Origin: Symmachiella dynata
GTDB lineage: Bacteria; Planctomycetota; Planctomycetia; Planctomycetales; Planctomycetaceae
Reading direction: 5' to 3'
DNA length: 64,000 nucleotides
Assembly (NCBI RefSeq): GCF_007747995.1
Contig: NZ_CP036276.1
Coordinates: 1,355,001 to 1,419,000, forward strand
Positions 35,179 through 38,535 of the stretch are shown here, one piece after another (position 1 is the first letter of the stretch; each line of letters starts with the position of its first letter). The translations under genes were made by a program, and so were the position numbers. The notes under the pieces are model-generated. The model worked only from the letters and a program-made list of their open reading frames with translations. It ran no database searches and was not told the DNA's origin.

Positions 35179-36306
35179 TCAATCCCCACCCGCAAAACGA
35201 ATCACATGCACCGGGGGGAGATGCTCCGATACCGTTTGCCATGACTCTCCCGCATCGCTCGACACCCACAGCGAACCGGTGGTGGAGCCCATCACCAGAT
35301 TGCGACCGGTGGCGTCGACGTCCAGGGCGTGTCGGTAGACCAGGTCGTAGGCATCGGTCGCCGGGAGACCGTCGCTCATGATGATGAAGGATTGTCCGCC
35401 GTCGTCGGTCCGCGTCACGACCATTTTACCGGCGACCGGAATGCGGCATTCGTCTTTCACAGCGGGGACGAACCAAGCGATGTCGGGATTCTGCGGATGC
35501 ACTGCAACGGCAAATCCGAAACCGGACGGTTGCACGCGATCCAGTTCTTGCCATGACTGACAGTCGTCGGTGGTACGAAAGATGCCGTTGTGGTGTTGCA
35601 CCCAAAACGTATCCGGATCAGCGGAGCAATTGACCAACCGGTGCGGATCCTGAACGTTGCCCGCGCCGGCCAATTCGGGGGGCATATATTCGGCCCGCAT
35701 CCCATCGGCGCAAAGGTCCCACGTTTCGCCACCATCGCGCGTGGTCCACACGCCGCCGCAGGAGACACCCACGGTGACGTGCGCGGAATCGCGCGGGTCG
35801 ACACAGACCGAGTGGATGCCCGGATCGTCGTACCCGCCGCCAAACCATTGCAGCCGTTCCGGACGGTCCCACAATGAGCGTAGCAGTTGCCACGACTCAC
35901 CCCGATCGGGAGAGCGAAACAATCCGCCGGGGATCGTTCCCGCCCACAGCACACCCGGTTGATCCGCTCCGGCCGACTCGAGCGCCCAGATTTGTGAAAG
36001 GCTCCATGAGTTGGGCCGTCCTTCTTTCTCTTCCTCCTGCTGTTTTTCCTCAGGCGTCTGCTCAGGGAATTGCGGAGCTGCGATTTCGGTCCACGTCTCT
36101 TCGCCCTGGTTCTGGCGATGCAACTTCACACCAAAGTGCCCGTGATTCAATGCACAATACAAACACCCATCGCGGGCATCATGAAACAGCATCGAGACCG
36201 GCTCGCCAAGGAAATCCCGTCGGGCGATCGTCCAGTCGTCCGCCTCGCTATTCCGGCGGAGGGTAAATAACCCTTTCTTCGTTCCTACGTGCAGGCGATT
36301 ACTCAT
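35179..36306 (-). CDS. Asp-box (BNR/sialidase-like) beta-propeller protein
   Basis: 375 residues without a signal peptide. Five Asp-box motifs are visible: SPDRGESWQLL, TRDGGETWDLC, TTDDCQSWQEL, RTDDGGQSFI and SSDAGESWQTV, so a propeller of five to seven blades. No sialidase arginine triad or catalytic Asp/Glu pair can be recognised. The start MSNRLHVGTKKGLFTLRR is repeated in degenerate form at 37284-37320, a duplication trace. The ATG overlaps the stop of the upstream cupredoxin-like gene, implying one transcript. A binding rather than enzymatic role is my inference. Confidence 0.75.
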   Translation of the reverse strand: MSNRLHVGTKKGLFTLRRNSEADDWTIARRDFLGEPVSMLFHDARDGCLYCALNHGHFGVKLHRQNQGEETWTEIAAPQFPEQTPEEKQQEEEKEGRPNSWSLSQIWALESAGADQPGVLWAGTIPGGLFRSPDRGESWQLLRSLWDRPERLQWFGGGYDDPGIHSVCVDPRDSAHVTVGVSCGGVWTTRDGGETWDLCADGMRAEYMPPELAGAGNVQDPHRLVNCSADPDTFWVQHHNGIFRTTDDCQSWQELDRVQPSGFGFAVAVHPQNPDIAWFVPAVKDECRIPVAGKMVVTRTDDGGQSFIIMSDGLPATDAYDLVYRHALDVDATGRNLVMGSTTGSLWVSSDAGESWQTVSEHLPPVHVIRFAGGD

Positions 36307-37222
36307 GGTCTATTTGTATCTTTTTAAAGGGATTAAAGTTCATGTTTTTACGAAGCTGTTCCAGTGTTAATTTGCAATTGGGCATGTGTGTCGTTTTGCC
36401 CGCCTCGACAGATACATTCACAAATTTCTCGACGTAGTTGATCGTTTCGTGCCAGACCCTCAAACGATGTTTGCCGACCGGCAAGTCGGGAATCGTAAAG
36501 GTGCCATCCTGAGCCGTGACAGCTGCGTAGGGGTGATCCAAGACCAATATCCAGCATGTCGCCATCTCCTCGATGTCGCTTTGGAGGCGGATCGGAGACC
36601 TTTCTGCGCGGCGCGGCGTCCATTTTGATCGCTGCAATGGCATGAGCCACTGGTTGAAGCCCGGTTCGCCTGTCGGAACAATGTGGAAGTTCGCCTGATA
36701 GTTTGGCGATAAGTTTCTGAATTGTATGGTTTGACCGGAATGTACAACACGGCTACGAGGGACAAATCGCGTGAGGCGGGAGACGATGTTGACGTCTTCC
36801 AACTCCTTCTCAGAATGGCGAGGATGAATCGCGTCCGGAGCTTTGCGGAGATAAACAAACGCGTTTTTAATTCCGCGTGTTGATTTGTCGATCATCAACG
36901 TGCGGTTGATCTCGACGCCGATTTGTCGTGCATTGTCGGGATTAACTCTTACGTTACGCTCGACTGCCAGCAACGACCGGGGGCCTGCATAGACCGGAAT
37001 CTCCCCGCGAAAACGATCCAACAGTGGATCGCTGAGGTCGCCCTCAAACACCACGCGGCCGGTCACCGAACCCCATGCGGCTTTGTCGGCAGACGCTGGT
37101 TGTGTTTCGTCAGCAGCTAACAATGCGGGGAGTCCGCAAAGGATGATGGCTGCGGTGAAGCTGGCCAGGGAATCGAATCGCCGATTCGACATTGCGGGGT
37201 CTGTTTTGAGCAAAACGTTCAT
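36299..37222 (-). CDS. Exported cupredoxin-like / carboxypeptidase-regulatory protein, copy A
   Basis: 307 residues with signal peptide (FTAAIILCGLPALLAA). After about 45 residues, SVTGRVVFEGD starts a beta-sandwich; VVHSGQTIQFRNLSPNYQANFHI is the cupredoxin-like strand pair, and the C-terminus (DGTFTIPDLPVGKHRLRVWHETINYVEKF) is the CarboxypepD_reg fold. In planctomycete relatives I know, a CNIHPWM-type copper motif precedes LVLDHPY; here it reads EEMATCWILVLDHPY, keeping Cys but not the His/Met set. Metal binding is thus doubtful. Tandem partner of the gene at 37344. Confidence 0.7.
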   Translation of the reverse strand: MNVLLKTDPAMSNRRFDSLASFTAAIILCGLPALLAADETQPASADKAAWGSVTGRVVFEGDLSDPLLDRFRGEIPVYAGPRSLLAVERNVRVNPDNARQIGVEINRTLMIDKSTRGIKNAFVYLRKAPDAIHPRHSEKELEDVNIVSRLTRFVPRSRVVHSGQTIQFRNLSPNYQANFHIVPTGEPGFNQWLMPLQRSKWTPRRAERSPIRLQSDIEEMATCWILVLDHPYAAVTAQDGTFTIPDLPVGKHRLRVWHETINYVEKFVNVSVEAGKTTHMPNCKLTLEQLRKNMNFNPFKKIQIDHE

Positions 37223-37343
37223 CGGTCACCTTGCCTTTGCTACAACCGTTGCGTCAGCCGCCCGACAAGGCCTGCATGACGAATCTTCGTTCCCACGTGC
37301 AGGCAATCACTCATGGTCTATTCTCGTTAGATTAAGTGGCGAT

Positions 37344-38234
37344 TCAACGTTGATGTTTTTTACGAAGCTTTTCTAACGTCAATTTGCAATTGGGCATGTT
37401 TGTCGTTTTGCCCGCCTCAACGGTTACATCTACAAATTTCTCGACGTAGTTGATCGTTTCGTGCCAGACCCTCAAACGATGTTTGCCGACCGGCAAGTCG
37501 GGAATCGTAAAGGTGCCGTCCTTAGCCGAAATGGCTGCGTAAGGATGGTCCAATATCAGCATCCAAGCTTTCGCTATCGGCCGCATATCACTTTGGATTT
37601 TGATCGGTATCCGTTCCGCACGTCGTGTTTCCCACGCCCTTTGTTTGAACGACTCAAAAAATGAATTGAAACCGGGATTACGGATCGTGTTAACGTGGAT
37701 GTTTGTCGAATAGTTCGGCGATAGGTTTTTGAATTGCACCGTTTGCCCCAATTGTACGATACAGGCACGGGGGACAAATCGCGTGTGGCGGGAGACGATT
37801 GTAACATCCTCTAACTCTTTCTCGGAGTACCGTGGATGAATCGCGTCCGGAGCTTTGTAAAGATAAACAAACGCGTTTTTAATTCCCCGTGTCGCCTCGT
37901 CGATCATTAACGTACGGTTGATCTCCACGCCGACTTGCCGCACAGCGTCGGGATTATCTGGCTCCAATCCCGCTGCCGCCCGTTGCGTCGGCCTCCCTTC
38001 ATAGACGGGAAGCTCTCCGCGAAAACGATCCAACAGTGGATCGGCCATGTCGCCCTCAAACACCACGCGGCCGGTCACCGAACCCCATGCGGCTTTGTCG
38101 GCAGACGCAGGTTGTGTTTCGTCAGCAGCTAACACTGCGGGGAGTCCGCAAATGAGGAAGGCTGCGGCAAGTCCAACGAGCGAATCGAATCGCCGATTCG
38201 ACATCGCGGGGTCTGTTTTGTGCAAAACGTTCAT
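37344..38234 (-). CDS. Exported cupredoxin-like / carboxypeptidase-regulatory protein, copy B
   Basis: 296 residues, paralogue of copy A by tandem duplication: the first 60 residues and the last 80 are nearly identical, the middle (about 160-215) has diverged. The position of the copper-motif cysteine is Ala here (DMRPIAKAWMLILDHPY), so no copper ligand set remains. The C-terminus is KLTLEKLRKKHQR, shorter than in copy A. Strong 5' and 3' conservation with a variable centre suggests a recent duplication followed by selection or conversion; which one cannot be told from one sequence. Confidence 0.7.
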   Translation of the reverse strand: MNVLHKTDPAMSNRRFDSLVGLAAAFLICGLPAVLAADETQPASADKAAWGSVTGRVVFEGDMADPLLDRFRGELPVYEGRPTQRAAAGLEPDNPDAVRQVGVEINRTLMIDEATRGIKNAFVYLYKAPDAIHPRYSEKELEDVTIVSRHTRFVPRACIVQLGQTVQFKNLSPNYSTNIHVNTIRNPGFNSFFESFKQRAWETRRAERIPIKIQSDMRPIAKAWMLILDHPYAAISAKDGTFTIPDLPVGKHRLRVWHETINYVEKFVDVTVEAGKTTNMPNCKLTLEKLRKKHQR

Positions 38235-38265
38235 CGGTCACCTTGCCTTTGCTACAACCGTTGCG

Positions 38266-38535
38266 TCAGCCGCCCGACAAGGCCTGCATGACGAACACTT
38301 CGCTGGCCGGATCGAGCGGATTGCTCAGATCATTGTGATCGCAAATCGGTCGGCTGTCCACAAAAATCGTAATATGCTGTCGCACTCGATTTTGGTCATC
38401 CAACACATAACCCCGCAACCGCGGATTGTCGCGAAACACCGCCTCAAGCGCCTGCCCGAGCGTCACCGCTTCGACATCAACAACCGGACAGTCAAGATGC
38501 CGATTGAGGTTGGCAGTGAAATTAACACGGGGCAT
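38266..38535 (-). CDS. MoaD/ThiS-family ubiquitin-like protein ending in Gly-Gly
   Basis: 89 residues with the beta-grasp pattern: VNFTANLNRH, VTLGQALEAVFRDNPRLRGYVLDD, ITIFVDSRPI, then FVMQALSGG. The C-terminal GG is the residue pair that E1-like enzymes adenylate and thiolate in sulfur carriers. First gene of the operon that continues with the two cupredoxin-like genes and the propeller. No ThiF/MoeB-like E1 or MoaE lies in the window, so activation would need an enzyme elsewhere. Small MoaD-like proteins next to Asp-box propellers occur in other genomes in my memory, but the role is unassigned. Confidence 0.8.
   Translation of the reverse strand: MPRVNFTANLNRHLDCPVVDVEAVTLGQALEAVFRDNPRLRGYVLDDQNRVRQHITIFVDSRPICDHNDLSNPLDPASEVFVMQALSGG

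What the first reader, a model, noticed from the sequence alone, without database searches (positions are those of the whole stretch)
35179..38535. MoaD/ThiS-like protein, duplicated exported cupredoxin-like proteins and Asp-box propeller in one operon
The four genes follow each other on one strand, with a 4-bp overlap between copy A and the propeller gene and short gaps elsewhere. A ubiquitin-like protein with intact Gly-Gly next to a five-Asp-box propeller, with two exported proteins that have lost the CxxH copper motif between them, is an odd mix: sulfur-carrier chemistry would be cytoplasmic, the middle proteins exported. It could be a sulfur-transfer or protein-tagging system whose client is the propeller or the exported pair.
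Basis: partly seen in the sequence, partly recalled or inferred. Interest (0 to 1): 0.6.

Follow-up and report, generated by a model that had tools for sequence, protein, structure and literature searches.

The report
Ubiquitin-like carrier paired with propeller enzyme
A small ubiquitin-like protein and a propeller-shaped protein are encoded side by side in many bacterial groups, probably as a sulfur carrier and the enzyme it serves, and in some relatives the propeller appears to carry selenocysteine; the two exported proteins between them here are a local insertion that was duplicated.

Summary
The four genes are real, but the unit is two genes. The MoaD-like protein and the Asp-box propeller form a conserved pair: MoaD lies just upstream in 79 of 80 related loci from six phyla; the 80th runs off its contig. 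Among 150 listed planctomycete propellers MoaD is within 2 kb for 38/40, 45/47 and 32/63 of three subfamilies; 10 of 12 inspected misses of the third have one too. Gene order switched at least 3 times. The Gly-Gly end is kept in 78 of 80 MoaD ORFs. An E1-like gene lies near 1 of 142 loci; no JAB gene lies beside the pair in 40 genomes. The exported genes are in none of the 80 loci; a sister species has one; this genome has two, with fossils of both flanking genes at the junction. One conserved propeller position is Asp, Cys or, in 13 genes with an in-frame TGA, probably selenocysteine. Best reading: a sulfur carrier feeding a propeller enzyme, substrate unknown. Neither the pair nor the selenoprotein was found in the papers searched.

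The parts
38266..38535 (-). MoaD/ThiS-like ubiquitin-fold protein, 89 aa; tail QALSGG at 38269-38286, stop 38266-38268
   Evidence: NCBIfam SAMP1 1.3e-9, below its cut-off; model pLDDT 87; Foldseek: SAMP1, 1v8c, CysO
35179..36306 (-). Asp-box beta-propeller, 375 aa, no signal peptide evident by eye; the usual partner of MoaD
   Evidence: PDB 3b7f; model pLDDT 89
35332..35814 (-). codons of highly conserved propeller positions: H165 (35812-35814), D220 (35647-35649; Cys/probable Sec in another branch), H222 (35641-35643), H239 (35590-35592), R325 (35332-35334)
   Evidence: H165 and R325 46/46, H222 and H239 45/46; for residue 220; same residues in 3b7f
37344..38234 (-). copy B, exported cupredoxin-like/CarboxypepD_reg-type protein without the copper motif; local insertion
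36299..37222 (-). copy A, tandem duplicate of B (72% aa identity); overlaps the propeller gene by 8 bp
37285..37314 (-). fossil of a propeller gene's first 10 codons left between B and A
   Evidence: (repeat D4)
37254..37283 (-). fossil of the last 9 codons and stop of MoaD left between B and A
   Evidence: (repeat D1)

Best explanation
A two-gene module of a dedicated ubiquitin-fold sulfur carrier and its client enzyme. SHOWN: the genes are neighbours across phyla and subfamilies; the MoaD Gly-Gly tail is strongly conserved; propeller conservation is enriched on one predicted face; one position there is Asp in the window's branch and Cys or probable Sec in a second branch. INFERRED: an E1-like enzyme encoded elsewhere in the genome adenylates the MoaD C-terminus and it becomes a thiocarboxylate; the tail enters the pocket on the conserved face of the seven-bladed propeller; there His165/His222/His239/Arg325 with Asp220 (Cys or Sec in relatives), possibly around a metal, transfer or oxidise the sulfur onto an unknown small substrate in the cytoplasm. 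The exported pair is a later local insertion, duplicated in this species' lineage, and not part of the mechanism.
For: Adjacency: 79/80 loci from six phyla (the best 80 of 93 relatives, found with the window's propeller); 38/40, 45/47 and 32/63 of 150 listed propellers in planctomycetes. Of the 31 third-band misses 12 were fetched and 10 have a MoaD beside the propeller after all. Order changed >=3 times with adjacency kept. Tail: 78/80 ORFs end in GG; Q-A-L-[ST]-G-G in 22/22 aligned. An E1-like gene is in 125/126 propeller genomes vs 153/168 others, p=0.0015 (lists compared by hand; test); own genome has 4. The carrier is distinct: own genome has 4 other ThiS-family places over cut-off. Nearest structures are CysO, SAMP1 and 1v8c, CysO being a carrier. 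Propeller: columns >=90% conserved are 17/83 in predicted top-face loops, 0/46 in A-B turns, 13/214 elsewhere and 10/32 in Asp boxes. Asp/Cys/TGA at one position, >=4 C/U switches.
Against: No other gene cluster recurs beside the pair across groups; E1 activation is assumed. Of tails of the A[VIM]-GG type, 9 of 33 are not terminal (one search prints 10; one, L140, is a pattern artefact whose true tail is terminal); some run on into AHSA1 or DinB domains, which a thiocarboxylate would not allow without processing. In the third band 19 of 31 misses were not inspected; L182 and L183, and plasmid loci L091-L093, show no MoaD. G105 has 6.8 kb of other genes between the two; G096:C3 has no MoaD in its 5-kb stretch. 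The match of Asp220 with a Leu tail (130 loci) and Cys/Sec with a Val/Ile/Met tail (35 loci; 188 examined, duplicates included) is one evolutionary split, so no independent evidence of contact. The E1 association may reflect genome size or completeness. Top-face segments were defined after the invariants had been seen.
Confidence: 0.5

Rival explanations
1. The MoaD-like protein is a non-covalent subunit or regulator of the propeller enzyme, its tail a plug or lid on the conserved face; no sulfur is carried.
For: Pairing without E1 neighbours; 9/33 A[VIM]-GG-type tails are extended or fused yet keep the GG motif.
Against: GG is exactly C-terminal in 132/135 ALSGG-type tails, more than a plug would need; an E1-like gene is in 125/126 propeller genomes.
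Confidence: 0.25
2. The MoaD-like protein is a protein modifier (as SAMP1/Urm1) attached to the propeller or, with it, to other proteins.
For: Nearest NCBIfam model is SAMP1 (38.5 bits) and the top Foldseek hits are SAMP1. The genome has a JAB gene and an E1-like gene next to each other, about 310 kb away.
Against: SAMP1 cut-off 60 not met; no Prok-JAB gene at E<=1e-5 in 20/40 propeller-bearing genomes and none beside the propeller in the rest; E1-like gene in 1 of 142 loci.
Confidence: 0.13
3. A four-gene export or copper system in which the exported pair works with MoaD and the propeller.
For: All four co-directional, 8-bp overlap, a same-genus genome keeps one exported gene in the same place.
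Against: None of 80 loci has the middle gene; only G000 and G294 among 101 family genomes hold a close copy; different predicted compartments; copper motif absent.
Confidence: 0.06
4. The propeller is a true sialidase/glycosidase and MoaD an unrelated passenger.
For: Public annotation calls it exo-alpha-sialidase; weaker fold hits include GH74 enzymes.
Against: No sialidase model among Pfam matches at E<=1; best is Sortilin-Vps10; NF045728 cut-off not met, 55.4 of 175; no signal peptide evident by eye; adjacency kept through order changes.
Confidence: 0.04

Closest known systems
CysO-CysM and BexX-CysO (PDB 3dwg, 4n6e)
   Same: small MoaD-like carrier with a C-terminal GG tail serving a client enzyme; hit by structure and by profile
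   Different: the neighbour here is an Asp-box propeller; no JAB gene beside it in 40 genomes; carrier-client contact not tested
MoaD-MoaE and ThiS-ThiG carrier-client pairs (recalled; MoaD structures)
   Same: two-protein logic, GG tail, beta-grasp fold
   Different: no recurrent second neighbour across groups; own genome has four other ThiS-family places over cut-off
SAMP1 (NF041918; PDB 3po0, 4hro)
   Same: best NCBIfam and Foldseek relative of the small protein
   Different: below the equivalog cut-off (38.5 vs 60); bacterial; paired with a propeller
PDB 3b7f, YP_299179.1/Reut_B4987 of Ralstonia eutropha
   Same: same fold (TM 0.85-0.87, 31% identity) and same H165, D220-P-H222, H239, R325; seven blades, five Asp boxes, family 'Not known' in PMC2716378 (passages seen)
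   Different: more distant in sequence; whether a MoaD gene lies next to it was not checked
Planctomycete copper-motif/CarboxypepD_reg proteins (paralogues at L085-L088)
   Same: same family as copies A and B by similarity
   Different: A and B lack the Cys and His of the copper-motif stretch; L085 lacks the Cys only

Membership tests
MoaD/ThiS sulfur carriers (Pfam PF02597) | score over the curated cut-off | tested here: not met
   15.8 vs 22.5 bits; relatives L165 32.5 and L171 39.1 meet it, L140 14.2 does not
MoaD/ThiS sulfur carriers (Pfam PF02597) | ubiquitin-like beta-grasp fold | tested here: met
   model pLDDT 87; Foldseek E<=1e-3 to SAMP1, CysO, MoaD, Urm1
MoaD/ThiS sulfur carriers (Pfam PF02597) | C-terminal Gly-Gly | tested here: met
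   QALSGG at the stop in the window; 78/80 ORFs
MoaD/ThiS sulfur carriers (Pfam PF02597) | thiocarboxylate formed by an E1-like enzyme | not testable with these tools
   E1-like genes exist in the genome but the chemistry cannot be computed
SAMP1 (NCBIfam NF041918) | score over equivalog cut-off 60 | tested here: not met
   38.5 bits
SAMP1 (NCBIfam NF041918) | isopeptide conjugation to proteins | not testable with these tools
   -
Asp-box beta-propeller | repeated Asp boxes in a propeller fold | tested here: met
   four strict boxes; strand pattern of the model; Foldseek 3b7f E 4.4e-31
GH33 exo-alpha-sialidase (public annotation) | match to sialidase family models | tested here: not met
   no sialidase model among Pfam matches at E<=1; catalytic residues not examined
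F510_1955 glycosylhydrolase (NF045728) | score over cut-off 175 | tested here: not met
   55.4 bits
Cupredoxin-type copper protein (copies A, B) | copper-motif Cys/His | tested here: not met
   SDIEEM / SDMRPI where paralogues have VCDLHAW / SCSIHAW
Cupredoxin-type copper protein (copies A, B) | cupredoxin fold of the N-terminal part | not tested
Selenoprotein (Cys/Sec-branch propellers, not the window's own) | in-frame TGA at one homologous codon aligned with Cys | tested here: met
   13/13 listed TGA places, motif [TSQ]-U-V-H-K
Selenoprotein (Cys/Sec-branch propellers, not the window's own) | Sec machinery in the genome | tested here: met
   SelA in 10/11 TGA genomes (G264 none), but also in 16/20 non-TGA genomes of the same search, so it shows capacity, not correlation; selB, selC and selD not searched
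Selenoprotein (Cys/Sec-branch propellers, not the window's own) | SECIS hairpin after the TGA | tested here: inconclusive
   27-nt stretch: mean -14.4 (11 Sec genes) vs -6.4 kcal/mol (11 Cys genes); stronger than 95% of uniform synonymous shuffles in 10/11 vs 2/11; L184 and L185 were not caught by the pattern. 75-nt windows of three genes not clearly below dinucleotide shuffles

The most novel reading that the evidence does not exclude
An undescribed family of carrier-dependent propeller enzymes widespread in bacteria: a ubiquitin-fold carrier delivers its C-terminal thiocarboxylate into a propeller pocket built on His/His/His/Arg plus an interchangeable Asp, Cys or selenocysteine, probably a metal site. 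That would be a new client class for MoaD-like carriers and a new selenoprotein family at the same time.
Probability: 0.4. Interest if true: 0.82.

Novelty: new variant of a known kind. Interest (0 to 1): 0.62.

Why it matters
Databases file the propeller as 'exo-alpha-sialidase' and the small protein as 'MoaD/ThiS family protein', so a widespread pair, present on a Pseudomonas aeruginosa plasmid, on a Burkholderia stagnalis plasmid and on the Cupriavidus metallidurans megaplasmid, carries a name that the family tests here do not support. Known clients of ubiquitin-fold sulfur carriers are few (recalled); a propeller client would add a new fold to them. The Asp/Cys/Sec position gives a testable active site, and 3b7f already holds the coordinates needed to look at it.

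Tried and rejected
Rejected: (a) four-gene system: the middle genes are absent from 80/80 other loci. (b) Tagging with clustered E1/JAB partners: E1-like ORF in 1 of 142 loci (L069, about 5 kb away; blastp with three own-genome E1 ORFs); Prok-JAB in 20/40 genomes, none beside the propeller (the 142 loci themselves were not scanned for JAB). (c) Sialidase: family tests not met. (d) Tail/active-site covariation as proof of contact: 130 Asp-Leu and 35 Cys/Sec-Val/Ile/Met of 188 loci, with 11 unreadable motifs, 11 without a tail and one mismatch, L181, which the pattern misread, but one split on the tree. For the tree, unreadable motifs were labelled Asp when the tail was ALSGG (circular for those rows) and L181 was set to Cys from the alignment. 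The 188 loci include places fetched twice. (e) SECIS by z-score of 75-nt windows: z 0.76, -1.56 and 1.09 in three genes, no clear signal. (f) SelA as a correlate of TGA: present in 10/11 TGA but also 16/20 other genomes. (g) Literature: searches and in-text word searches gave no mention of the pair or of a propeller selenoprotein. Only search listings, abstracts or passages were seen. No supplements were available: PMC4807772 lists planctomycete selenoprotein candidates in a supplementary table that I did not see. The PA locus numbers used were recalled. (h) Gene calling was poor (antisense ORFs) and was replaced, which is heuristic too.

Rows dropped: L004, L008 and L054 left out of the propeller alignment because of stop codons in the matched stretch; A1 and A3 use 22 and 18 representatives of the 80 loci plus the window; the 46-row alignment has 18 rows of the window's subfamily, 3 of the second and 25 of the third; the tree uses 79 propellers, with only a sample of the loci. 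One search uses only the 150 listed places each; both lists were cut.
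Full report
WHAT IS THERE. The window lies in a 7.77-Mb single-contig genome. On the minus strand four genes run MoaD-like (38535-38266), copy B (38234-37344), copy A (37222-36299) and propeller (36306-35179). The small protein scores 38.5 bits to SAMP1 (cut-off 60) and 15.8 to Pfam ThiS (cut-off 22.5), and its predicted fold matches SAMP1, Thermus 1v8c, CysO and MoaD. The propeller matches PDB 3b7f by sequence (1.5e-50) and fold, a seven-bladed, five-Asp-box protein whose family is listed as 'Not known' in PMC2716378 (passages seen).

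THE MIDDLE PAIR IS A LOCAL EVENT. A and B share 72% of residues. Direct repeats at 1008-1012-nt spacing extend beyond the genes: one includes the last 9 codons and stop of MoaD, another the first 10 codons of the propeller. The B-A gap therefore reads propeller start, then MoaD end. This is what tandem duplication of a segment 'MoaD end - exported gene - propeller start' leaves. A same-genus genome (G294, L139) has MoaD, one exported gene and the propeller; the third genome held for the genus (G295) has only a Cys-branch propeller. Among 101 family genomes only G000 and G294 hold a close copy of the exported gene; G295 and G318 have distant ones, 40% and 39% identical. None of the 80 loci has it. 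MoaD and propeller DNA are 94.1% and 91.9% identical between the two species, the exported genes only 78-84%, so the exported genes evolve faster; whether the duplication came after the split is not settled. In both copies the copper-motif Cys and His seen in some paralogues are gone.

MOAD-PROPELLER IS THE CONSERVED UNIT. The best 80 of 93 relatives found with the window's propeller come from records titled Pseudomonadota groups, Acidobacteria, Planctomycetota, Myxococcales, Verrucomicrobiales and Actinomycetota. 79 of the 80 have a MoaD ORF just upstream on the same strand; the other (L054) starts 94 nt from a contig end. 78 of 80 MoaD ORFs (the window's included) end exactly in GG; L002 reads on past GG and L051 is truncated. 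In 294 genomes of the window's phylum, 126 have the propeller (E<=1e-40) and 122 a MoaD (E<=1e-10). Of the 150 listed propellers, same-strand MoaD within 2 kb occurs for 38/40 of the window's subfamily, 45/47 of a second and 32/63 of a third (the bands are mine, by E-value). Of the 31 misses in the third band I fetched 12. Ten have a MoaD beside the propeller: L134, L135, L180 and L181 a divergent one ending in AGG, L177, L178, L179, L185, L187 and L190 one below the threshold or off the cut list. Two, L182 and L183, show none; 19 were not inspected. Plasmid propellers L091-L093 show none either. In the other bands G105 has 6.8 kb of other genes between the two, recognised by eye as oxidoreductases and a DUF1559 protein, G096:C3 has no MoaD within its 5-kb stretch, and G180 and G256 have theirs on another contig. 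On the propeller tree MoaD changes side at least 3 times (4 by parsimony) while adjacency stays, which shared ancestry of one frozen operon does not explain.

NO OTHER PARTNER SEEN. Clustering neighbours within five genes in 135 loci put MoaD in 106; the next six clusters (14-28 loci) occur only in the loci, which are rich in Oxalobacteraceae, and the two 12-locus clusters that cross groups look like an antisense ORF and a gene scattered in position. An E1-like ORF appears in 1 of 142 loci. Own-genome E1-like genes (four) lie about 310 kb or more away. Genomes with the propeller have an E1-like gene in 125/126 cases, others in 153/168 (lists; Fisher p=0.0015), a weak and possibly confounded sign. 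Prok-JAB is found in 20 of 40 propeller-bearing genomes, never beside the propeller.

THE PROPELLER LOOKS LIKE AN ENZYME. In 46 aligned propellers (18, 3 and 25 of the three subfamilies) W154, H165, S182, G185, G264, F265, P281 and R325, among others, are kept in 46/46, and H222 and H239 in 45/46. Mapped on the predicted strands, columns conserved at >=90% make up 17 of 83 positions in strand-A starts and B-C turns, 0 of 46 in A-B turns, 13 of 214 elsewhere and 10 of 32 in Asp boxes. In the usual propeller layout (recalled) strand-A starts and B-C turns form one face, around the central cavity; the segments were chosen after the invariants had been seen. 3b7f keeps H165, D220-P-H222, H239 and R325. 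Residue 220 is Asp in the window's branch and Cys in a second; the two are sides of one supported branch. In 13 Cys-branch genes, all those flagged in the list, the codon is an in-frame TGA, always in [TSQ]-U-V-H-K, with at least four C/U switches on the tree. SelA is present in 10 of 11 of those genomes and absent from the window's, but also in 16 of 20 non-TGA genomes of the same search, so it shows capacity only. A short hairpin 25-38 nt after the TGA is stronger in 11 Sec genes (mean -14.4) than in 11 Cys genes (-6.4 kcal/mol), though 75-nt windows of three genes do not clearly stand out from dinucleotide shuffles. Selenocysteine is the likely reading. Three prokaryotic selenoprotein papers (PMC13188914, PMC9312934, PMC2398784; word searches of the main text) contain none of the words propeller, BNR, sialidase or MoaD; the supplementary selenoprotein list of PMC4807772 was not seen.

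MECHANISM. Sulfur carrier plus client is the likeliest model because the tail is under the constraint expected of a carrier, the closest structures include a carrier with known clients (CysO with CysM and BexX), and the partner has a conserved face with a nucleophile or metal-ligand position. Two observations cut against it: 9 of 33 tails of the A[VIM]-GG type carry extra residues or whole domains after GG (AHSA1 in L171, DinB in L165), and no activating gene was found clustered. A non-covalent subunit is therefore the main rival. Substrate and reaction are unknown; the cytoplasmic location is inferred from the absence of an evident signal peptide.

NOVELTY. The pair is not mentioned, by the words searched, in three comparative-genomics papers (PMC1779556, PMC1949818, PMC2948915), nor do the listings show a paper on it. 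The library holds open-licence papers only. I rate it a new variant of a known kind: carrier-client logic with a new client fold and a Sec-containing branch.

Noticed in passing
L171:5512-5514, L172:5475-5477, L174:5712-5714 and ten further TGA places: Cys-branch propellers with an in-frame TGA at one homologous codon: a candidate new selenoprotein family in planctomycete genomes.
   Followed up: partly
L165:5842-6699, L171:6008-6742: MoaD-like domain continuing in frame past its GG into a DinB domain (L165) or an AHSA1 domain (L171).
   Followed up: partly
L184 (downstream of the propeller): MoaD tail PAVSGG followed in frame by 137 residues that begin like an ArsC/low-molecular-weight phosphatase (TVIFACVHNAG; recognised from memory, not scanned).
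   Followed up: no
L089, L165, L181: Some pairs sit near sigma-factor, YCII-domain or DUF1428 genes, hinting at a stress regulon.
   Followed up: no
L092:5977-10545: Cys-branch propeller without MoaD in Fuscovulum lies next to SCO-family and multicopper oxidase genes.
   Followed up: no
L152:4976-7624: Two tandem propeller genes behind one MoaD in G120; by coordinates also in G022, G086, G193, G204, G237 and G247, all of family f25.
   Followed up: no
own genome G000:C1:1702439-1703387 (outside the window): A Prok-JAB gene lies directly next to an E1-like gene in the same genome, about 310 kb from the pair.
   Followed up: no
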